NCBI RefSeq assembly: GCF_014638745.1
Contig: NZ_BMFO01000001.1
Location: 62,001-126,000, forward strand
Direction of reading: 5' to 3'
Origin: Arenimonas maotaiensis
GTDB taxonomy: Bacteria; Pseudomonadota; Gammaproteobacteria; Xanthomonadales; Xanthomonadaceae
Length of the DNA: 64,000 bases
Under the pieces are notes generated by a model, which made no database searches, was not told the origin of the DNA, and saw only the letters and a list, made by a program, of their open reading frames with translations. Positions 52,803-64,000 of this stretch are shown piece after piece. The translations under genes and the position numbers were made by a program. How positions within the stretch are numbered: position 1 is the first letter of the stretch; each line of letters opens with the position of its first letter.

Positions 52803-54203
<1,401 letters not shown>

Positions 54204-54204
54204 C

Positions 54205-54498
54205 ATGTGGATCGGACTGGTCTTCGCCTTCCTCGGCGTGTTCGGCTCGGCCCTGCCCGGCCACTTCGGCATGCGCGTGCTGGCCTACCGCGAGCATCTG
54301 GACCGGCAATTGCCATTCGCGCCCGGCACCGGCCAAGGCGGCCTGCCCTACAGCTGGTGGCTGATGCGTTTCGGCCACAAGGCCCATCCGCAGGCGCGGG
54401 TGCTGAACCAGTTCGGCAACCTGGCCGGCGTGTTCGGCTGGATCGCGCTGGTGGCGCTGGTCGCCGCCGTCTTCTGTTTCATCATGAGCAAGGCCTGA
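54205..54498 (+). CDS. Small membrane protein of unknown function
   Basis: A 97-residue protein with a hydrophobic N-terminal helix (about 2-22) and a second helix near the C-terminus (about 72-93). The loop contains PFAPGTGQGGLPYSWWLMRFGHKAHPQ in part (GLPYSWWLMRFGHKAHP), which looks conserved-type sequence, but I recognise no family. It begins one base after asnS and ends 4 nt before the next gene, so it is probably translated from the same mRNA. Confidence 0.65.
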   Translation: MWIGLVFAFLGVFGSALPGHFGMRVLAYREHLDRQLPFAPGTGQGGLPYSWWLMRFGHKAHPQARVLNQFGNLAGVFGWIALVALVAAVFCFIMSKA

Positions 54499-54502
54499 GT
54501 GC

Positions 54503-54835
54503 ATGGACGAATACGACGATCTTCCCGAATACCTCATCGTCTCCGAACAGTGGTGGCTGGCCCGGCCGGAGCACCTGCTGGTCTGGGCCCGCCTGCGGGT
54601 CACCGAAAACGGCGTCGCCTTCGTGTTCGACAGCAAGGGCGAGACCCTGGCGTTCGAAAGCGAGGACATCGCCCGTGCCGCGCTGATGGACGCCGACTTC
54701 CGCTCGTTCGACGGCATGGACGAGGACGACGCCGACAGCCTGGGCCTCTGGCTGGAGGAGCTCGAGCCGCCGCAGGGCGACAACGACGAGGATCTGTTGC
54801 CGCAGATGATCAAGACCATCGGTCCGAGGCACTGA
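54503..54835 (+). CDS. Acidic hypothetical protein
   Basis: A 110-residue, strongly acidic, soluble protein without signal peptide or membrane segment (DEYDDLPEYLIVSEQWW, DGMDEDDADSLGLWLEELEPP). Predicted beta strands in the middle (VRVTENGVAFVFDSKGETLAFES-like region) suggest a small alpha/beta domain. No family is recognised. It is packed between the membrane protein and the SDR gene, one base before the latter's GTG. Confidence 0.6.
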   Translation: MDEYDDLPEYLIVSEQWWLARPEHLLVWARLRVTENGVAFVFDSKGETLAFESEDIARAALMDADFRSFDGMDEDDADSLGLWLEELEPPQGDNDEDLLPQMIKTIGPRH

Positions 54836-54836
54836 C

Positions 54837-55607
54837 GTGGCCGTCCTGCTCGGCCGAAAAGCCCTGGTCTGCGGCGCCTCGGAAGGCATCGGTCTGGCCT
54901 CGGCACGCGCCCTGGCGACGCTCGGCGCCGACGTCACCCTGCTGGCCCGCCGCGAAGACGCCCTGCGTGCCGCACTGGCCACTCTGGACGACCGCCACGG
55001 GCAAGCGCATGCCCTGCTGGTAGCCGACCTGCTCGACCTGCATGCCGTCTTGCCCGGCATCGCCGGCGCCGGTTACGGCATTGTGGTCAACAACAGCGCA
55101 GGGCCGGCCGGCGGCGCCTTGCAAAACGCCGACGAAGCGCAGCTGCTGACGGTGTTCCGACAGCATGTGATCGGCGCCCAACAGCTGCTGCAGGCGGTGT
55201 TGCCTGGCATGCGCGCGGCGCGCTGGGGCCGTATCGTCAACGTCATCTCGACCTCGGTCAAGGAACCGATTCCGATACTGGGTGTGTCGAACACCATCCG
55301 CGGCGCCATGGCGTCCTGGGCCAAGACCCTAGCCACCGAACTGGCCGCCGACGGCATCACCGTCAACAACGTGCTGCCGGGCTATACGCGCACGCAGCGC
55401 CTGCAGCAGATCCTGCGCGACCGCGCCGCGGCCACCGGCAAATCCGAAGCTGCCGTCGCCGAAGCCATGCTGGCCAGCGTGCCGGCGGCGCGCTTCGCCG
55501 AAGCCGAGGAAATCGCACACGCCGTGGCCTTCCTGTGCCAACCGATGTCGGGTTACATCAACGGCGTCAATCTGCCGGTGGACGGCGGCCGCACCAAGTC
55601 GCTGTAA
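54837..55607 (+). CDS. SDR-family protein with atypical active site
   Basis: A 256-residue short-chain dehydrogenase/reductase, start GTG at 54837. The Rossmann motif is GASEGIGLASARALATLGA, and GRIVNVISTS and the C-terminal GYINGVNLPVDGG are SDR-like. The canonical YxxxK is missing: the aligned stretch reads SNTIRGAMASWAKTLA, with Ser for Tyr and Arg for Lys. A 3-oxoacyl-reductase-like SDR subgroup lacking the catalytic tetrad is known; the reaction is undefined. It directly precedes the kynurenine operon (54-nt gap) and may belong to it, but could equally be part of the asnS transcript. Confidence 0.82.
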   Translation: MAVLLGRKALVCGASEGIGLASARALATLGADVTLLARREDALRAALATLDDRHGQAHALLVADLLDLHAVLPGIAGAGYGIVVNNSAGPAGGALQNADEAQLLTVFRQHVIGAQQLLQAVLPGMRAARWGRIVNVISTSVKEPIPILGVSNTIRGAMASWAKTLATELAADGITVNNVLPGYTRTQRLQQILRDRAAATGKSEAAVAEAMLASVPAARFAEAEEIAHAVAFLCQPMSGYINGVNLPVDGGRTKSL

Positions 55608-55661: not shown

Positions 55662-57089
55662 ATGATTGGCATTGAACACTGGATTGCCGGCGAACGACGG
55701 GCCTCCGCGGCCGCCGATCGGTTGCCGGTATCCGATCCGGCGACCGGCACGGTTTATGCCGAGTGCCCGCGCGGCCACAGCCAGGACGCCGAGGCGGCGG
55801 TCGCCGCCGCCGAAGCCGCCTTCCCGGTTTGGTCGGTGCTGAAACCGAGCGAACGCGCGCGTTGGCTGAATCGCTTGGCCGATGCCATCGAAGCCCGCAG
55901 CAAGGCGTTCACCGCCTGCGAGAGCCGGGACACCGGCAAGCCGCTGGCGCTGGTGCGCGACATCGAAGTGCCGCGCGCGGTCGCCAATTTCCGCTTCTTC
56001 GCCGCGCAGTGCCTGAATGCGCCGGACCACGCTTTTCACGACGAGGCCGGCCTGAATTACACCCGGCACGCGCCGCTCGGCACGGTGGCGGTGATCAGCC
56101 CCTGGAACCTGCCGCTGTATCTGCTGAGCTGGAAGCTGGCGCCGGCCTTGGCCGCCGGCAACTGCGTCATCGCCAAACCCAGCGAAATCACCCCGATGTC
56201 GGCCGAGCTGTTGGCTGAAGTCGCCCATTCCATCGGCTTCCCGGCCGGCGTGCTGAACCTCCTGCAAGGCGCCGGCGACACCGTCGGCGCGGCCTTGGTC
56301 GCGCATCCGCGCGTGCGCGCCGTCAGCTTCACCGGCTCGACCCGCGTCGGCCACACCATCGCCGCCGAATGCGCCCGGCAGTTCAAGAAAGTGACGCTCG
56401 AGATGGGCGGCAAGAATCCGGCCGTGGTGTTCGATGACGCGCCGGAACACACGCCCGCCGCGCTGCTGCGCGCGGCGTTCCAGAACAGCGGCCAGATCTG
56501 CCTGTGCGCTTCGCGCATCCTGGTGCAGCGCGGCCGCTACGAACAGGTGAAAGCCGCCTTGGTGCGCGATGCCGCGGCGCTGCGGGTCGGACCGCCCTCG
56601 GATTCGGCCTCGCAGCTCGGCCCGATGATGTCGAAAGCGCATTTCGATAAGGTTATGGCTTATATCGCCTTGGCCCGCGAGGAAGGCGGCCGCATCCTGT
56701 GCGGCGGCGAAGCGGTCGAACGCGACGGCGGCTGGTACATCGCGCCGACCCTGATCGAAGGCCTGCCGATGTCGGCGCGCAGTTGCCGTGAGGAGATTTT
56801 CGGCCCGGTGGTCAGCCTGCATCCGTTCGAAGACGAGCGTGATGCCTTGGCGCTGGCCAACGATTCCGAATACGGCCTGGCCGCCAGCGTCTGGACCCGC
56901 GACCTCGGCCGCGCCCGGCGCATGGCCGACGGCCTACAGACCGGCATCGTCTGGATCAATACCTGGATGCAGCGCGACCTGCGCACGCCGTTCGGCGGCA
57001 TGAAGCAGTCCGGCTTCGGCCGCGAGGGCGGCCTCGAGGCGCTGCTGTTCTTCACCGAACCGAAAACCGTCTGCATAGGAACCGACTGA
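55662..57089 (+). CDS. 2-aminomuconate-6-semialdehyde dehydrogenase
   Basis: This NAD-dependent dehydrogenase oxidises 2-aminomuconate semialdehyde to 2-aminomuconate in kynurenine/3-hydroxyanthranilate breakdown. The 475-residue protein is of the ALDH8A1/AmnC type, with ISPWNLPLYLLSWKLAPAL, FTGSTRVGHTIAAECA, the glutamate in LEMGGKNPAVVF and the nucleophile in NSGQICLCASRI. The next gene starts on the following base, and the neighbours encode the preceding (ACMSD) and following (deaminase) steps, which fixes the substrate. Confidence 0.92.
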   Translation: MIGIEHWIAGERRASAAADRLPVSDPATGTVYAECPRGHSQDAEAAVAAAEAAFPVWSVLKPSERARWLNRLADAIEARSKAFTACESRDTGKPLALVRDIEVPRAVANFRFFAAQCLNAPDHAFHDEAGLNYTRHAPLGTVAVISPWNLPLYLLSWKLAPALAAGNCVIAKPSEITPMSAELLAEVAHSIGFPAGVLNLLQGAGDTVGAALVAHPRVRAVSFTGSTRVGHTIAAECARQFKKVTLEMGGKNPAVVFDDAPEHTPAALLRAAFQNSGQICLCASRILVQRGRYEQVKAALVRDAAALRVGPPSDSASQLGPMMSKAHFDKVMAYIALAREEGGRILCGGEAVERDGGWYIAPTLIEGLPMSARSCREEIFGPVVSLHPFEDERDALALANDSEYGLAASVWTRDLGRARRMADGLQTGIVWINTWMQRDLRTPFGGMKQSGFGREGGLEALLFFTEPKTVCIGTD

Positions 57090-57746
57090 ATGCCCGAACT
57101 GAAGCAACTGCTCGAACAGAACAAGGACTGGGCGCAGCGCGTGCTGGCCGAGGATCCGGGCTTCTTCGCGCGTCTGGAGAAACTGCAGAGCCCGAAGCAC
57201 ATGTGGATCGGCTGCTCGGATTCGCGGGTGCCGGCCAACCAGATCACCGGCATGGATCCGGGCGAGGTGTTCGTGCACCGCAACGTCGCCAACGTGGTGG
57301 TTCACACCGACCTGAACTGCCTGAGCACCCTCCAGTTCGCGGTCGACATGCTGCAGGTCGAACACATCATCGTCTGCGGCCACTACGGCTGCGGCGGCAT
57401 CCAGGCCACGCTCGATGGCCGCCGCATCGGACTGGTCGACAACTGGCTGCGGCACGTCGGCGACGTGCTCGACAAACACCAGGAACGCCTTGACGCGGTG
57501 GTGTCGGCCCGGCGCCACAACACGCTGTGCGAACTGAACGTGATCGAGCAGACCCTGAACGTCTGCCAGAGCACGGTATTGCAGGACGCCTGGCAGCGCG
57601 GCCAGACCATCACCGTACACGCCTGGATTTATTCGCTGCACAACGGTCACATCCGCGCGCTGAACACGGGCATCGAGAGCACCGAAGGCATCGTGTCCGG
57701 CTACCGCAACGCGCTGGCCGCGTGCTGGGAGCGCGCCCATGGCTGA
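57090..57746 (+). CDS. can: Beta-class carbonic anhydrase
   Basis: A zinc enzyme interconverting CO2 and bicarbonate. The 218-residue protein has the zinc ligands and partners of the beta class: GCSDSRVPANQ (Cys and the Asp-Arg dyad) and CGHYGCGGIQ (His and Cys). FVHRNVANVV is also conserved. It follows the AMSDH gene without a gap and overlaps the deaminase gene by 8 nt, so it is embedded in the kynurenine operon. A plausible role is handling CO2 released by ACMSD, or supplying substrate to the SbtA-like permease two genes on. Confidence 0.94.
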   Translation: MPELKQLLEQNKDWAQRVLAEDPGFFARLEKLQSPKHMWIGCSDSRVPANQITGMDPGEVFVHRNVANVVVHTDLNCLSTLQFAVDMLQVEHIIVCGHYGCGGIQATLDGRRIGLVDNWLRHVGDVLDKHQERLDAVVSARRHNTLCELNVIEQTLNVCQSTVLQDAWQRGQTITVHAWIYSLHNGHIRALNTGIESTEGIVSGYRNALAACWERAHG

Positions 57747-58164
57747 GGCCATCCACGCCGGCGACGCGCCCAAGGCGGTCGGCTCGTATCCGCATGCGCG
57801 CCGTGCCGGCGACTGGCTGCTGCTGTCCGGCATCGGCCCGCGCGATCCGGCCGACGACCGCATCGCCGGCAACGTGTACGCCCCGGACGGCAGCCTGCAG
57901 AGCTACGACATCATCGCGCAATGCCATGCGGTGTTCGCCAACGTCAAGGCCGTGCTGCAGGCCGCCGGCGCCGGCATGCACGACCTGGTCGACGTCACCG
58001 TGTATCTGACCGACATGGCCGCCGACTTCGCGGCCTACAACCGGGTCTGGCGCGAATACTTCCCGGATCCGGCCACGGCACCCTGCCGCACCACGCTCGG
58101 CATCACCGCGCTGCCGACGCCGATCGCCATCGAACTCAAATGCACCGCCTATCTGGGAAAATGA
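57739..58164 (+). CDS. 2-aminomuconate deaminase (RidA family)
   Basis: A 141-residue RidA/YjgF-family protein. The conserved arginine is in [15 protein letters not shown], and the N-terminal [20 protein letters not shown] matches AmnD/NbaF-type 2-aminomuconate deaminases. Those enzymes hydrolyse 2-aminomuconate to 4-oxalocrotonate and ammonia. The operon context between AMSDH and 3-HAO supports this over the general RidA function of imine hydrolysis. Start overlaps the carbonic anhydrase gene by 8 nt. Confidence 0.88.
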
Positions 58165-58165
58165 C

Positions 58166-58693
58166 ATGCTGCCGCCGGCCTTCAACCTGCACGCCTGGAT
58201 CGACGAGCACCGGCACCTGCTGAAGCCGCCGGTCGGCAACAAATGCATCGTCGACGGCGACTTCATCGTCATGGTCGTCGGCGGCCCGAACCAGCGTACC
58301 GATTACCACGTCGAGGACGGCCCCGAGTTCTTCTACCAGATCGAGGGCGAGATGGTGCTGCGCATCCAGGAAGACGGCGCCGTGCGCGACATCCCGATCA
58401 AGGCCGGCGAGATGTTCTACCTGCCGCCGCGCGTGCCGCATTCGCCGCAGCGCATGCCCGGCTCGGTCGGCCTGGTGATCGAACGCCGGCGCCTGGCGCA
58501 CGAACAGGACGCGCTGCGCTGGTTCTGCGAGGCCTGCAACGCCGGACTGTACGCGGAGTCCTTCCAGCTGACCGACATCGAGAACCAGTTCCACGCCGTA
58601 TTCGAGCGCTTCTACCGCTCACTTGAACACCGCATCTGCAAAGCCTGCGGCCACCTCAACCCGGCGCCGGCGCGCTTCCACGCCGAATCCTGA
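58166..58693 (+). CDS. 3-hydroxyanthranilate 3,4-dioxygenase
   Basis: This iron cupin dioxygenase opens the ring of 3-hydroxyanthranilate to aminocarboxymuconate semialdehyde. The 175-residue protein has the cupin metal ligands in [20 protein letters not shown] and [12 protein letters not shown]-terminal rubredoxin-like site of two CxxC pairs (WFCEACNAG and RICKACGH) is diagnostic of bacterial 3-HAO. It starts one base after the deaminase gene. Gene names haaO or nbaC are used for orthologues. Confidence 0.95.
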
Positions 58694-58702
58694 GGCCAGT
58701 AC

Positions 58703-59677
58703 ATGCTTCCCGTCGACCTGTTCTCCGCCGATCTGCTCGCCGCCAACCTGCTCTCGCCGGTGGTGTTGGCGTTCGCCTTGGGTCTGCTGGCCCGGCTGCT
58801 GCGCAGCGACCTGGAAATCCCGGCCGCGATCCAGAGCTACCTCTCCATCTTCCTGCTGCTGGCCATCGGCCTGAAGGGCGGCGTGGCGTTGCGGCAACAG
58901 ACGCCACACGACCTGCCCGTGCTGATCCTCGCCACCATCGCGCTCGGCGTAGTGACCGCGTTCAGCGCCTACGGCCTGGCCCGGCTCTGGCTGCGCGACG
59001 GCCGCATCGACGGCTCCGCCATCGCCGCCCACTTCGGTTCGGTATCGGCGGTGACCTTCATCGCCGCGCAGCAGTTCAGCGAACGCAGCGGGCAGCCGGC
59101 CGATGCCGTGTTGGTGGCGTTGGTGGTGGCGATGGAAATCCCCGCCATCCTGGTCGGCCTGGCGCTGGCCAAGGGCGCCCAGGGCGTGCGCTGGCATCAC
59201 GTACGCGAAGTGTTGACCGGCAAGACCGCGCTGCTGCTGCTCGGCGGCTTGACCATCGGCGCGCTCAGCAGCGCCGATGCGCTGGCCAAGGTCGACGCCA
59301 TGTACTTCCAGCTGTTCCAGGGCACGCTGATGCTGTTCATGCTCGACATGGGCCTGTTGGCCGGCGGCCAGCTGCGCTTTGTCGGCCGCAGCGCGCTGCG
59401 GTTGATGGCATTCGCCACCGCGTTGCCCTTGCTGCACGGCCTGCTCGGCGTTTCGCTCGGCCACGCCATCGGCATGGACGCCGCGACCTCGGCGGTGTTC
59501 GGCACCATGGCCGCCAGCGCCTCGTACATCGCCGCGCCGGCTTCCATCCGCGCGTCCCTGCCGGAAGCCAACGTCGGTCGTTGCATTACCGCCGCGCTCG
59601 GCTTCACCTTCCCGTTCAATCTCGCCATCGGCATCCCGCTGTACTTCGCGTTCGCCGCGTTACTGAGCCGTCTCTGA
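58703..59677 (+). CDS. SbtA-family sodium-dependent bicarbonate permease
   Basis: A 324-residue polytopic protein with about ten hydrophobic helices. It resembles the SBT (SbtA, DUF897) family of Na+/HCO3- symporters: the paired repeats IPAAIQSYLSIFLLLAIGLKGG and LLSPVVLAFALG, the FGSVSAVTFIAA loop, and ASASYIAAPASIRASLPEAN in the second repeat. It lacks the long cytoplasmic insert of cyanobacterial SbtA, and no SbtB partner is present. It lies 9 nt after the 3-HAO gene and 7 nt before ACMSD. Bicarbonate transport is the family's known role; transport of a pathway carboxylate is an alternative. Confidence 0.85.
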   Translation: MLPVDLFSADLLAANLLSPVVLAFALGLLARLLRSDLEIPAAIQSYLSIFLLLAIGLKGGVALRQQTPHDLPVLILATIALGVVTAFSAYGLARLWLRDGRIDGSAIAAHFGSVSAVTFIAAQQFSERSGQPADAVLVALVVAMEIPAILVGLALAKGAQGVRWHHVREVLTGKTALLLLGGLTIGALSSADALAKVDAMYFQLFQGTLMLFMLDMGLLAGGQLRFVGRSALRLMAFATALPLLHGLLGVSLGHAIGMDAATSAVFGTMAASASYIAAPASIRASLPEANVGRCITAALGFTFPFNLAIGIPLYFAFAALLSRL

Positions 59678-59684
59678 GCACGTC

Positions 59685-60698
59685 ATGCTGAAAATCGACA
59701 CCCACGCCCATTACCTGCCCCGCGACTGGCCCGATTTGGCCGCCAAATACGGCGACAGCCGCTTCCCGGTGATCCACCATGGCAGCGACGGCGGCCACCG
59801 GATCTACAAGGACGGCAAGTTCTTCCGCGAAATATGGCCGAAGACCTGGGATCCGCAGGAGCGCATCGCCGACTACGCGCGCTTCGGCGTGCAGGTGCAG
59901 GTGATCTCCACCGTGCCGGTGATGTTCAGCTATTGGGCCGCGCCGAACCAGGCGCTGGAACTGCACCAGAGCCTGAACGACCACATGGCGCAGACCTGCC
60001 GCGAGCATCCGCGCCACTACGCCGGCATCGGCACCGTGCCGTTGCAGTCGCCGCGCCTGGCGATCCAGGAGATGGAACGCTGCATCGACCAGCTCGGCCT
60101 GAGCGGCGTGCAGATCGGCTCGCACGTCAACGACTGGAACCTGGACGCCGCCGAACTGCAGCCGTTCTTCGAGGCCGCACAGGATCTGGGCGCCGCCATC
60201 CTGGTGCACCCGTGGGACATGATGGGCGCCGAATCGATGCCGAAATACTGGATGCCCTGGCTGGTCGGCATGCCGGCCGAGCAGAGCCGCGCCGCCTGCG
60301 CGCTGGTGTTCGGCGGCGTACTGGAGCGTTTTCCGCGCCTGAAGGTGATGCTGGCGCACGGCGGCGGCAGCTTTCCGTACACCATCGGCCGCATCGAGCA
60401 CGGCTTCCATATGCGCCCGGATCTGGTGGCCACCGACAACCCGGGCAATCCGCGCGACTACTTGCGCCGGCTGTATTTCGACTCCTGCGTGCACGATGGC
60501 CGCGCCCTGCGCTATTTGATCGACACCGTCGGCCTTGACCGCATCATGCTCGGCACCGATTACCCGTTCCCGCTCGGCGAACAGGAGCCGGGCTCCGGCA
60601 TCCGCGGTCTGGCGCTCGGCGAGGACGCCGATGCCCAGCTGTTCCACCGTACCGCGCTGTCCTGGCTCGGTCTCGACGCCCGGCGGTTCGCGCCATGA
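59685..60698 (+). CDS. 2-amino-3-carboxymuconate-6-semialdehyde decarboxylase (ACMSD)
   Basis: ACMSD is a zinc amidohydrolase-family decarboxylase that diverts aminocarboxymuconate semialdehyde away from quinolinate and releases CO2. The 337-residue protein begins with the metal-binding IDTHAHYLP, and contains LVHPWDMMG, MLAHGGGSFPYTIGRIEHG and the aspartate in MLGTDYPFPLGE. Length and motifs match the family. It overlaps kynU by 4 nt (ATGA). Its presence marks the operon as catabolic. Confidence 0.95.
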   Translation: MLKIDTHAHYLPRDWPDLAAKYGDSRFPVIHHGSDGGHRIYKDGKFFREIWPKTWDPQERIADYARFGVQVQVISTVPVMFSYWAAPNQALELHQSLNDHMAQTCREHPRHYAGIGTVPLQSPRLAIQEMERCIDQLGLSGVQIGSHVNDWNLDAAELQPFFEAAQDLGAAILVHPWDMMGAESMPKYWMPWLVGMPAEQSRAACALVFGGVLERFPRLKVMLAHGGGSFPYTIGRIEHGFHMRPDLVATDNPGNPRDYLRRLYFDSCVHDGRALRYLIDTVGLDRIMLGTDYPFPLGEQEPGSGIRGLALGEDADAQLFHRTALSWLGLDARRFAP

Positions 60699-61969
60699 GC
60701 GGCCTGTTTACGGAAGCGCACGCGCTGGCGCAGGACCTGGCCGATCCGCTGGCGCATTTCCGCGCCCTGTTCCACATCCCGCAGCACCAGGGCCGCGATC
60801 AATGGTATTTCTGCGGCAATTCGCTCGGCCTGCAGCCGAAGAGCGTGCGCGCGGCCTTGCAGCAGGAGCTCGACGACTGGGCCGCGTTCGGGGTGGAAGG
60901 CCACTTCCACGCCAAACATCCGTGGATGCCCTACCACACCGAACTGCGCGACCTGCTGGCCGAGTGCGTCGGCGCCAAGCCGCTGGAAGTGGTGGCGATG
61001 AATTCGCTGACGGTGAACCTGCATCTGCTGATGGTCAGCTTCTACCGCCCGACCCCGACCCGGCCGGCCATCGTCATCGAACAGGGTGCGTTTCCGTCCG
61101 ACCGCTACGCGGTCGAATCGCAGATCCGCTTCCACGGCCACGATCCGGCCGAGTGCCTGATCGAAGTCGGCGCCGATTCGGACAGCGGCTTGGTGACCGA
61201 AGACGCCTTGGCGCAAGTGATGGCCGAACACGGCCACCGCGTGGCCTTGGTCCTTTGGCCCGGCGTGCAGTACCGCACCGGACAGGCATTCGACCTGCGC
61301 GCGATCAGCGTGCTCGGGCACACGCACGGCAGCAAGGTCGGCTTCGACCTGGCGCATGCGGTCGGCAACCTGCCGCTGCAGTTGCATGCCTCCGGCGCCG
61401 ACTTCGCCGCCTGGTGCAGCTACAAATACCTGAACGCCGGCCCGGGCGCGATCGCCGGCGCGTTCGTGCACGAACGACACGCCACCGCCGCCTTGCCGCG
61501 CTTCAACGGCTGGTGGGGCCACCGCCAGGACACCCGCTTCAAGATGGGCGCCGAATTCCAGGGCTCGCCCGGCGCCGACGGTTGGCAGCTCAGCAATCCG
61601 CCGATCTTAGCCATGGCGCCGCTACGCGCCTCGCTGGAGATCTTCCAGCAGGCCGGCATCGACGCCCTGCGCCGCAAATCCAAAGCCCTGACCGGCTATC
61701 TGGCCGCGCTGATCGCGCAGGAGCTGGCCGGCGTCATCCGCAACGTGACCCCGGCCGACCCGGAGCGCCGCGGTTGCCAACTGAGCCTGCAGGTGTTGGC
61801 CGGTCGCGAGGCCGGACGTGCGCTGTTCGAACACCTGATGGCCGAAGGCGTGATCGGCGATTGGCGCGAACCGGACGTCATCCGGCTGTCGCCGACGCCG
61901 CTGTACAACCGCTTCGGCGATTGCTATCACGCGGTGCGCGTGATCAAGCAATGGGCGGACGCACGATGA
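60695..61969 (+). CDS. kynU: Kynureninase
   Basis: Kynureninase cleaves 3-hydroxykynurenine (or kynurenine) to 3-hydroxyanthranilate (or anthranilate) and alanine with PLP. The 424-residue protein has the N-terminal YFCGNSLGLQPK, and the PLP lysine in WCSYKYLNAGPGAIAGAFVH. It overlaps ACMSD upstream and kmo downstream by 4 nt each. With kmo next to it, 3-hydroxykynurenine is the expected substrate. The alanine released could enter the alanine dehydrogenase route elsewhere in the window. Confidence 0.96.
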   Translation: MSGLFTEAHALAQDLADPLAHFRALFHIPQHQGRDQWYFCGNSLGLQPKSVRAALQQELDDWAAFGVEGHFHAKHPWMPYHTELRDLLAECVGAKPLEVVAMNSLTVNLHLLMVSFYRPTPTRPAIVIEQGAFPSDRYAVESQIRFHGHDPAECLIEVGADSDSGLVTEDALAQVMAEHGHRVALVLWPGVQYRTGQAFDLRAISVLGHTHGSKVGFDLAHAVGNLPLQLHASGADFAAWCSYKYLNAGPGAIAGAFVHERHATAALPRFNGWWGHRQDTRFKMGAEFQGSPGADGWQLSNPPILAMAPLRASLEIFQQAGIDALRRKSKALTGYLAALIAQELAGVIRNVTPADPERRGCQLSLQVLAGREAGRALFEHLMAEGVIGDWREPDVIRLSPTPLYNRFGDCYHAVRVIKQWADAR

Positions 61970-63312
61970 AGGCGCAGCGCATCCACATCATCGGCGCCGG
62001 CCTGGCCGGCACCCTGCTCGCCATCCTGCTCGTACGCCGCGGGCATTCGGTGCGGGTGTTCGAGAAGCGCCCGGATCCGCGGCAAACCGGTTACCAAGGC
62101 GGCCGCTCGATCAACTTGGCGCTGGCCTTCCGCGGATTGCATGTGCTGCGGCAGGCGGGTCTGGACGCGGCGGTGATGCCGCAGACGGTGATGATGCGCG
62201 GCCGCATGGTGCACGACGTCGATGGCCGGCAGAATTTCCTGCGCTATGGCAAGGACGATTCGGAGGTGATCTGGTCGGTCCATCGCGGCCGCCTGAATCG
62301 GGCGCTGATCGACGCCGCCGAGGCGCTGGGCGTACGGATCGAATTCAACGCGCAGATCCGCGACCTCGACCTCGACGCCGGTTGCTTCACCCTGCAGGAC
62401 GCCGACGGCGGGCGCGTGGAGCGCTTCGAGCGGCTGATCGGCGCCGACGGCGCCGGCTCGCAGGTGCGCCAGGCGATGGTGGCCGCCGGTTCGGTCACGG
62501 CCCGCACTGAATCGCTGGGCCATCATTACAAGGAACTGGAGATCGCGCCGGCCGACGACGGCAGCTTCCGCCTCGACGGCAACAGCCTGCACATCTGGCC
62601 GCGCGGCGGCTTCATGTGCATCGCGTTGCCCAACACCGAGCGCACCTTCACCGTCACCTTGTTCCTGCCGGCGTCCGGCGAGACCGGTTTCGACTGCATA
62701 CGCAGCCCGCAGGACGCGCGCGCGTTCTTCCATGCGCAGTTCCCGGACGCGCTGGCGCTGATCGCCGATTTCGAGCAGGACTGGACGCAAAACCCGGAGA
62801 GCCCGCTGTCGACCCTGTATCTCGACCGCTGGCACCACCGCGACCGCGCCGTGCTGCTCGGCGACGCCGCGCATGCGATGGTGCCGTTCCACGGCCAAGG
62901 CATGAACTGCGCGTTCGAGGACTGCCTGGCCCTGCTCGAGGCCGTCGAGGCCGAAGCCGATTGGGAGACGGCCATCGCCCGTTACCAACGCGAACGCCAG
63001 GCCAACGCCGCCGCCATCCAGGCCATGGCGCTGGAAAACTACATCGAGATGCGCGACCGGGTCGACGACGCCGACTTCCTGCTGCAGCGCGCGCTGGAAC
63101 GCGAACTGGCCGCGCGCCACCCCGAACGCTTCGTGCCGCGCTATTCGATGGTCAGCTTCCGGCGCACGCCCTATACCGTGGCGCTTGCCCGCGGCAGCGT
63201 GCAACGGGACATATTGCAGACGCTGTGTGCAGGAAAATCCGACATCGCACAGGTCGATTTCGCGCTAGCCTCGGAACTGGTCCATCGCCGTCTCGAGCCC
63301 CTGCATGACTGA
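61966..63312 (+). CDS. kmo: Kynurenine 3-monooxygenase
   Basis: Kmo is an FAD monooxygenase that hydroxylates L-kynurenine with NADPH and O2. The 448-residue protein has the FAD loop IIGAGLAGTLLAILLVRRG, the DG motif RLIGADGAGSQVRQ, and GDAAHAMVPFHGQGMNCAFED. It lacks the C-terminal membrane anchor of eukaryotic Kmo, as expected in bacteria. The ATG at 61966 overlaps the kynU stop (ATGA); the longer upstream frame is a shadow of kynU. It overlaps sbcB by 8 nt. Confidence 0.96.
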   Translation: MKAQRIHIIGAGLAGTLLAILLVRRGHSVRVFEKRPDPRQTGYQGGRSINLALAFRGLHVLRQAGLDAAVMPQTVMMRGRMVHDVDGRQNFLRYGKDDSEVIWSVHRGRLNRALIDAAEALGVRIEFNAQIRDLDLDAGCFTLQDADGGRVERFERLIGADGAGSQVRQAMVAAGSVTARTESLGHHYKELEIAPADDGSFRLDGNSLHIWPRGGFMCIALPNTERTFTVTLFLPASGETGFDCIRSPQDARAFFHAQFPDALALIADFEQDWTQNPESPLSTLYLDRWHHRDRAVLLGDAAHAMVPFHGQGMNCAFEDCLALLEAVEAEADWETAIARYQRERQANAAAIQAMALENYIEMRDRVDDADFLLQRALERELAARHPERFVPRYSMVSFRRTPYTVALARGSVQRDILQTLCAGKSDIAQVDFALASELVHRRLEPLHD

Positions 63313-64000
63313 CACCTTCCTCTGGTTCGACCTGGAGACCTTCGGCCGCAGTCCGCGCGAAAGCCGTATCGCCCAATTCGCCGCGATCCGTACCGACGCC
63401 GCGTTGCAGCCGGTCGGCGAGCCGATCTCGCTGTTCTGCCGGCCGGCCGACGACTTCCTGCCGGAACCGGAAGCGGCGCTGATCACCGGCCTGACGCCGC
63501 AGGCGGTGTCCGCCGCGGGCCTGTGCGAGGCCGAGTTCATGGCCGTGCTGCACGAGCAGTTCAGCCAGCCGGGCACCTGCGCGCTGGGCTACAACACCCT
63601 GCGCTTCGACGACGAATTCATCCGCTTCGGGCTGTACCGCAACTTCTTCGACGCCTACGAGCGCGAATACGCCGGCGGCAACTCGCGCTGGGACCTGCTG
63701 GACGTGATGCGCATGCTGTACGCGCTGCAGCCCGGCGCCCTGCAGTGGCCGCTGCGCGAGGACGGCCAACCGAGCTTCAAGCTCGAACATCTGGCCAAGG
63801 CCAACGGCTGCTTCGAGGGCGAGGCGCACGAGGCGCTGTCGGACGTGCGCAGCCTGATCAACCTGGCGCGCAAGGCCAAGATGGCGGCGCCGGCGCTGTG
63901 GGATTACGCGCTGTCGCTGCGCGACAAGAACCGGGTGGCCGAACGCCTGCAGCCACACCGCGGCCGGCGCGTATTGCACGTATCCGGACAGTTCCCGGCC
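63305..64000 (+). CDS. sbcB: Exodeoxyribonuclease I (C-terminus beyond window)
   Basis: ExoI degrades ssDNA 3'-5' in recombination and mismatch repair. I translated 232 codons from the ATG at 63305 to the window edge without a stop. The DnaQ-like exonuclease core is clear: FLWFDLETFG, LGYNTLRFDDEFIRFG, RNFFDAYEREY followed by NSRWDLLDVMRMLYAL, and the last acidic motif HEALSDVRSLI. These match ExoI specifically, not DnaQ or RNase T. It overlaps kmo by 8 nt, so it may be translated from the kynurenine operon mRNA, although its job is unrelated. Confidence 0.95.
   Translation, partial: MTDTFLWFDLETFGRSPRESRIAQFAAIRTDAALQPVGEPISLFCRPADDFLPEPEAALITGLTPQAVSAAGLCEAEFMAVLHEQFSQPGTCALGYNTLRFDDEFIRFGLYRNFFDAYEREYAGGNSRWDLLDVMRMLYALQPGALQWPLREDGQPSFKLEHLAKANGCFEGEAHEALSDVRSLINLARKAKMAAPALWDYALSLRDKNRVAERLQPHRGRRVLHVSGQFPA

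What the first reader, a model, noticed from the sequence alone, without database searches (positions are those of the whole stretch)
55662..63312. Carbonic anhydrase and SbtA-type bicarbonate permease embedded in a kynurenine catabolic operon
Eight genes with gaps of 0-9 nt or overlaps encode AMSDH, beta-carbonic anhydrase, aminomuconate deaminase, 3-HAO, an SbtA/DUF897 permease, ACMSD, KynU and Kmo. The enzymes are seen directly by motif. I know of no described role for a CO2/HCO3- pair in this pathway. ACMSD releases CO2, so a possible logic, inferred, is interconversion and movement of the released inorganic carbon or pH control, comparable to CynT in the cyanate operon. Alternatively the SbtA-like protein may carry an aromatic or dicarboxylate intermediate.
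Basis: partly seen in the sequence, partly recalled or inferred. Interest (0 to 1): 0.78.

Follow-up and report, generated by a model that had tools for sequence, protein, structure and literature searches.

The report
Bicarbonate-supply genes inside kynurenine operon
In one bacterial family the genes for breaking down or re-using the amino acid tryptophan share a cluster with a carbonic anhydrase, and in some members with a bicarbonate transporter; the pair most likely supplies the cell with bicarbonate rather than handling the CO2 that the pathway releases.

The parts
54837..55607 (+). SDR-family oxidoreductase, usual first gene of the cluster in the family (61 of 92 loci)
55662..57089 (+). 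2-aminomuconate 6-semialdehyde dehydrogenase (AMSDH)
   Evidence: PF00171 546 bits; best solved relative 4u3w
57090..57746 (+). Can-type beta-carbonic anhydrase; C42, D44, R46, H98, C101 present; N-terminus collinear with cytosolic Can, no extension
   Evidence: PF00484, NF007756 over cut-off, positions 1-212; residues
57739..58164 (+). RidA-family protein, probable 2-aminomuconate deaminase
   Evidence: PF01042; best solved relative 6izh
58166..58693 (+). 3-hydroxyanthranilate 3,4-dioxygenase (3-HAO)
   Evidence: NF009763 and TIGR03037 over cut-off
58703..59677 (+). SbtA-family (PF05982) Na+/bicarbonate-type symporter
59685..60698 (+). ACMSD, 2-amino-3-carboxymuconate-6-semialdehyde decarboxylase, human-like
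   Evidence: 411 bits to 2wm1
60695..61969 (+). kynureninase (KynU)
   Evidence: TIGR01814 469 bits
61966..63312 (+). kynurenine 3-monooxygenase (Kmo)
   Evidence: 451 bits to 5y66; ATG at 61966

Best explanation
The beta-carbonic anhydrase and the SbtA permease are a bicarbonate supply for the cell, housed in a kynurenine (tryptophan catabolism / NAD) operon. The anhydrase hydrates CO2 to HCO3- in the cytosol, and SbtA brings HCO3- in with Na+; either can feed the HCO3--dependent carboxylases that growth in air requires. The anhydrase gene was inserted between the AMSDH and RidA genes early in the family and stayed in most lineages that lost ACMSD, AMSDH and RidA; SbtA joined beside 3-HAO. 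Shown: gene content, conservation, predicted fold, patterns of presence. Inferred: the transported substrate and its direction, co-transcription, the order of gains and losses, and that the kynurenine enzymes do not themselves need the pair.
Against: Paired comparison on the tree shows no association of SbtA with CA at the locus (of 6 pairs, on average 0.3 same way, 0.2 opposite, 5.5 no difference), so the substitution signal rests on a few genomes, three of them MAGs of unstated completeness. Y140 and S327 of cyanobacterial SbtA, two of four docked HCO3- contacts, are V/L and A here. A Labrenzia SbtA-like protein showed no HCO3- uptake in E. coli (PMC4275256). No SbtB-like gene lies in the window operon. 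Cytosolic CA together with HCO3- import can be a futile cycle (PMC9894237). The window genome has a second beta-CA. Gamma- and iota-CAs were not searched. SbtA is mostly found with ACMSD (33 of 36). The reason for placement in this operon is not explained.
Confidence: 0.6

Rival explanations
1. The pair handles CO2 set free by ACMSD: CA hydrates it and SbtA moves the HCO3- or helps hold pH.
For: All three genes share the window operon; 33 of 36 evaluable kynurenine-SbtA loci have ACMSD; on the tree SbtA and ACMSD change the same way on average 1.4 times and the opposite way 0.0 times in 6 independent pairs, not significant.
Against: CA without ACMSD at the locus in 25 of 82 long loci; for 18 of these the genome has no ACMSD ortholog, for 7 it was not searched. 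SbtA without ACMSD in L059, L080 and L113, the last two with CA; the genome of L080/G049 has no ACMSD ortholog, those of L059 and L113 were not searched for it. ACMSD without CA in 11 of 27 sampled loci outside the family. CO2 crosses membranes quickly and SbtA is known as an importer.
Confidence: 0.12
2. The SbtA-like protein has changed substrate and carries a kynurenine-pathway anion (kynurenine, 3-hydroxyanthranilate, quinolinate or a muconate); the CA is an unrelated housekeeping lodger.
For: All 37 loci found of this clade are with kynurenine genes; long stem branch of 1.31 changes per column and 18 group-specific positions; the wider fold includes the auxin carrier PIN8; no SbtA-CA association in the paired test.
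Against: S114, S322, S324 and A at S327 agree with the distant set, many of them beside a CA; site Y140 is V or L in both, V commoner here and L there. In the family genomes at least 90% complete, the two without beta-CA both have an SbtA-family gene. The operon CA is kept in 31 of 36 evaluable SbtA loci.
Confidence: 0.14
3. Frozen neighbourhood: a housekeeping CA was caught in a conserved gene string (asnS ... exonuclease I) and SbtA followed it by chance; there is no shared regulation.
For: asnS-like and exonuclease I-like genes flank the cluster in 14 of 14 family loci examined (13 genomes, my choice); the CA is usually the only beta-CA and so would be kept wherever it lies.
Against: CA lies a median 7 nt before RidA (63 loci), or 8-250 nt before 3-HAO in the 23 loci where it directly precedes it (ends extrapolated from tblastn), after loss of the genes that elsewhere lie between; SbtA sits on either side of 3-HAO yet always among these genes.
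Confidence: 0.12

Closest known systems
SbtA-SbtB bicarbonate uptake of cyanobacteria (Synechocystis SbtA, PDB 7cye/8zor)
   Same: Fold, broken TM4/TM9 crossover, S114 and S324, S322 of the Na+ site
   Different: No SbtB gene in the operon, Y140 to V and S327 to A, no autotrophic context seen at the locus, partner is a Can-type CA
SbtA - PII-like - beta-CA modules in Gemmatimonadota, Planctomycetota, Bdellovibrionota (among L085-L128)
   Same: Nearest relatives of the window SbtA outside its clade (36-46% identity); in about half a beta-CA lies nearby
   Different: Their CA is 23-30% identical to the window CA and several have an N-terminal extension that looks like a signal peptide (by eye); no kynurenine genes found at those loci
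E. coli Can (housekeeping beta-CA)
   Same: Same NCBIfam equivalog; same metal residues and W39/R64/Y181
   Different: Gene lies inside a kynurenine operon
Kynurenine catabolic operons of other Gammaproteobacteria (AMSDH-RidA-3HAO-ACMSD-KynU-Kmo; e.g. L210, L213, L221, L223)
   Same: Same enzymes and order
   Different: No CA and no SbtA there
cynTSX cyanate operon (recalled)
   Same: CA carried in a catabolic operon
   Different: Cyanase consumes HCO3-; no operon enzyme here is known to

Membership tests
PF05982 / SbtA-type Na+-dependent bicarbonate transporter family | Pfam model over curated cut-off across the length | tested here: met
   310 bits against 27, profile 1-307 of 308
PF05982 / SbtA-type Na+-dependent bicarbonate transporter family | 5+5 inverted-repeat fold with interrupted TM4 and TM9 | tested here: met
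Cyanobacterial SbtA proper | Four docked HCO3- side chains S114, Y140, S324, S327 (PMC8352866) | tested here: not met
   S114 and S324 kept, Y140 to V and S327 to A in the window; the distant set, many beside a CA, has S, L/V, S, A
Cyanobacterial SbtA proper | SbtB gene next to sbtA | tested here: not met
   No gap between the operon genes that could hold a PII-like gene; rest of the genome not searched for PII
SbtA transporters | Na+-dependent HCO3- uptake | not testable with these tools
   Needs a transport or complementation assay
Beta-carbonic anhydrase, Can type | Zinc ligands C42, H98, C101 and the D44/R46 pair | tested here: met
   Present in the window and in every aligned family CA that covers them
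Beta-carbonic anhydrase, Can type | Curated equivalog NF007756 over cut-off | tested here: met
   288 against 251 bits
Beta-carbonic anhydrase, Can type | CO2 hydration activity | not testable with these tools
   Needs an enzyme assay
Kynurenine to 2-aminomuconate catabolic operon | Kmo, KynU, 3-HAO, ACMSD, AMSDH and deaminase together | tested here: met
   tryptophan dioxygenase elsewhere in the genome
CynT-type logic (CA feeds an enzyme of its own operon) | An operon enzyme that uses HCO3- as substrate | tested here: not met
   None among the eight gene products by family together with established chemistry; activities not assayed

The most novel reading that the evidence does not exclude
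The operon is an 'air-growth' unit: Kmo and 3-HAO need O2, and life in air is also when cells run short of CO2/HCO3-, so the family has tied O2-dependent tryptophan use (catabolism, and NAD synthesis where NadA is missing) to bicarbonate supply under one control, with SbtA able to replace carbonic anhydrase altogether in several lineages.
Probability: 0.22. Interest if true: 0.65.

Novelty: new variant of a known kind. Interest (0 to 1): 0.47.

Why it matters
It shows that in most sampled members of a large bacterial family the main, and often only detected, beta-carbonic anhydrase is encoded within the kynurenine/NAD cluster, and it gives a natural series (both genes, CA only, SbtA only, neither) in which to test whether a bicarbonate importer can take over from carbonic anhydrase in a heterotroph. 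It would also link oxygen-dependent tryptophan use with inorganic-carbon supply, a connection that I did not find in the papers searched.

Tried and rejected
Rejected: chance neighbourhood of a single genome; ACMSD-CO2 handling as the reason for the CA; a degenerate CA, since the metal and active-site residues are kept; membership in cyanobacterial SbtA proper, since two docked contacts and a neighbouring SbtB are missing. A gene that replaces SbtA where it is absent was looked for in L047 and only a VapBC-like pair was seen (named by eye). Promoter and terminator scan: no useful signal, 2 promoter-like sites against 1.0 expected, 2 terminator-like against 5.9. Tree-based paired tests of ACMSD, CA and SbtA had 5-6 pairs and could not reach significance.

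Literature: searches gave no paper whose listing suggested a CA or SbtA in a kynurenine operon; only listings were seen and those papers were not opened. The library lacks most subscription papers; Kurnasov et al. 2003 (recalled) was not looked up. PMC13249358 was searched for SbtA-site terms and gave nothing of use.

Limits: class and phylum surveys are samples. The 27 outside-family loci leave out matches of E above 1e-7, and several lie on short contigs. The genome-contig scan used patterns from the kynurenine-linked alignment itself and kept the best 80 of 96 confirmed hits, so distant or unlinked members may be missed. Gamma- and iota-CA were not searched; alpha-CA was searched in 9 genomes only (0 of 9). 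Completeness of the MAGs behind L059, L082 and L088 was not given. The count of 69 genomes was made by hand. In one search ACMSD counted as present only at 70% identity or more, so outside rows with a less similar ACMSD counted as absent and its 7 changes may be inflated; 12 named SbtA loci were added on purpose. All seven other CA-without-ACMSD long loci keep AMSDH and RidA, and ACMSD may lie elsewhere in those genomes. W39/R64/Y181 as the type II bicarbonate site is recalled.

Full report
What is there. The window carries, on the + strand, AMSDH (55662-57089), a beta-carbonic anhydrase (57090-57746), a RidA-family probable 2-aminomuconate deaminase (57739-58164), 3-HAO (58166-58693), an SbtA-family permease (58703-59677), ACMSD (59685-60698), kynureninase (60695-61969) and kynurenine monooxygenase (61966-63312). 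The assignments are supported by families or solved relatives. The string continues with gaps of at most 54 nt upstream (an asnS-like gene, two small ORFs, an SDR) and with an overlap downstream (an exonuclease I-like gene) (asnS and exonuclease named by eye). Tryptophan dioxygenase and NadA lie elsewhere in the genome, so here the operon looks catabolic and is not the only NAD route.

Whose it is.

How widespread. In 99 genomes of the family, 3-HAO is in 93, PF05982 in 17 and PF00484 CA in 96. In 10 of the 17 PF05982 genomes an SbtA gene is next to 3-HAO on the same strand (by coordinates; by content); G007 has a further SbtA fragment at a contig end that cannot be judged. Of 92 3-HAO loci (one per genome, window not counted), CA is in 86, SbtA in 9, ACMSD in 57, AMSDH and RidA in 64 each; none of the genes counted lies on the opposite strand. 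The six without CA are L033, L043, L152 (contig edge), L198, L205 and L206; the last three genomes have a CA elsewhere. Outside the family, 27 loci were fetched from class and phylum samples (15 of 274 and 45 of 398 genomes with any match, 13 and 31 over the cut-off, family members included): 0 of 27 have a CA, 11 have ACMSD. A 28th locus of that fetch (L236) belongs to the family and has the CA. So the CA looks like a family trait, apparently inserted between AMSDH and RidA, which are neighbours in several outside loci.

Is it tied to ACMSD? Among 82 loci of 15 kb or more, CA/ACMSD/SbtA combinations are: CA+ACMSD 46, CA only 25, all three 6, none 4, ACMSD+SbtA without CA 1. Of the 25, 18 are compact (CA and 3-HAO, 17 of them with KynU-Kmo, no AMSDH) and 7 keep AMSDH and RidA. 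ACMSD was sought in 25 genomes, the window's and all 18 compact ones included: only the window's has an ortholog, the other 24 at most 30% identical amidohydrolases; the genomes of the 7 were not searched. NadA is missing in 71 of 99 genomes, so the kynurenine route probably makes NAD there (inference). On a tree of 3-HAO + KynU (97 rows, quick method; the 7 outside rows do not form one side), the fewest changes are SbtA 10, ACMSD 7 (at a 70% identity threshold, so possibly inflated), CA 4. In 5 independent pairs of family rows that differ in ACMSD, CA on average does not differ in 4.0. Against this: SbtA itself is mostly in ACMSD operons. Of 37 kynurenine-linked SbtA loci, 36 can be judged; 33 have ACMSD, while L059, L080 and L113 do not; L062 is cut. 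The paired test shows the same direction but cannot reach significance.

Interchangeability. Five of 36 evaluable kynurenine-SbtA loci lack the CA (L059, L060, L067, L082, L088). A genome search found no beta-CA match in four of these five genomes; L067's genome has one elsewhere (12 genomes asked, chosen to include the five; the other seven each have one). Fisher tests give p 0.03 and 0.02 and ignore kinship and sampling; G009 and G059 share a genus. Against it, the paired test of SbtA with CA at the locus shows nothing (0.3 same, 0.2 opposite, 5.5 no difference of 6). Alpha-CA is absent from both. In Alkalisalibacterium (L008, L076; SbtA present) the CA reading frame appears split in two frames. 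A shared bicarbonate-supply role would predict such losses: cyanobacterial SbtA rescues a can mutant of E. coli (PMC4275256, passages), growth in air needs HCO3-, which CA or Ci uptake can supply (PMC9894237, passages and section 9 part 1), and a one-or-the-other pattern of cytosolic CA and transporter is reported for some autotrophs (PMC10880623, passages). The same papers raise two doubts: a Labrenzia SbtA-like protein was inactive, and CA plus import can be a futile cycle.

Conclusion. The best reading is a bicarbonate-supply pair lodged in a kynurenine operon, with the CA as the only beta-CA match in 69 of 99 family genomes. The CO2 of ACMSD does not explain the CA. Why this operon is the home remains open; shared use in air is my most novel suggestion and is untested.

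Noticed in passing
window 52803-55607 and 63305-64000: An asnS-like gene, a 97-aa ORF, a 110-aa ORF and the SDR precede, and an exonuclease I-like gene follows, the kynurenine genes on one strand (names by eye); asnS-like and exonuclease-like genes flank the cluster in 14 of 14 family loci checked.
   Followed up: partly
L047:10600-11314: A VapBC-like toxin-antitoxin pair (named by eye) lies between 3-HAO and ACMSD, where SbtA lies in other genomes.
   Followed up: no
L008:2935-3563, L076, G011:C14:128288-128745: The operon carbonic anhydrase of Alkalisalibacterium limincola appears split over two frames, in a genome that has SbtA.
   Followed up: no
L085-L128: Recurrent SbtA - PII-like - beta-CA neighbourhoods in Gemmatimonadota, Planctomycetota and Bdellovibrionota, some with a LysR-type regulator (by eye) nearby.
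   Followed up: partly
family genomes: NadA is absent from 71 of 99 genomes of the family, so the kynurenine route is probably their de novo NAD route; the window genome has NadA.
   Followed up: partly
G000:C1:47332-47790: Second beta-carbonic anhydrase (33% identical over residues 4-110) in the window's genome, outside the window.
   Followed up: no
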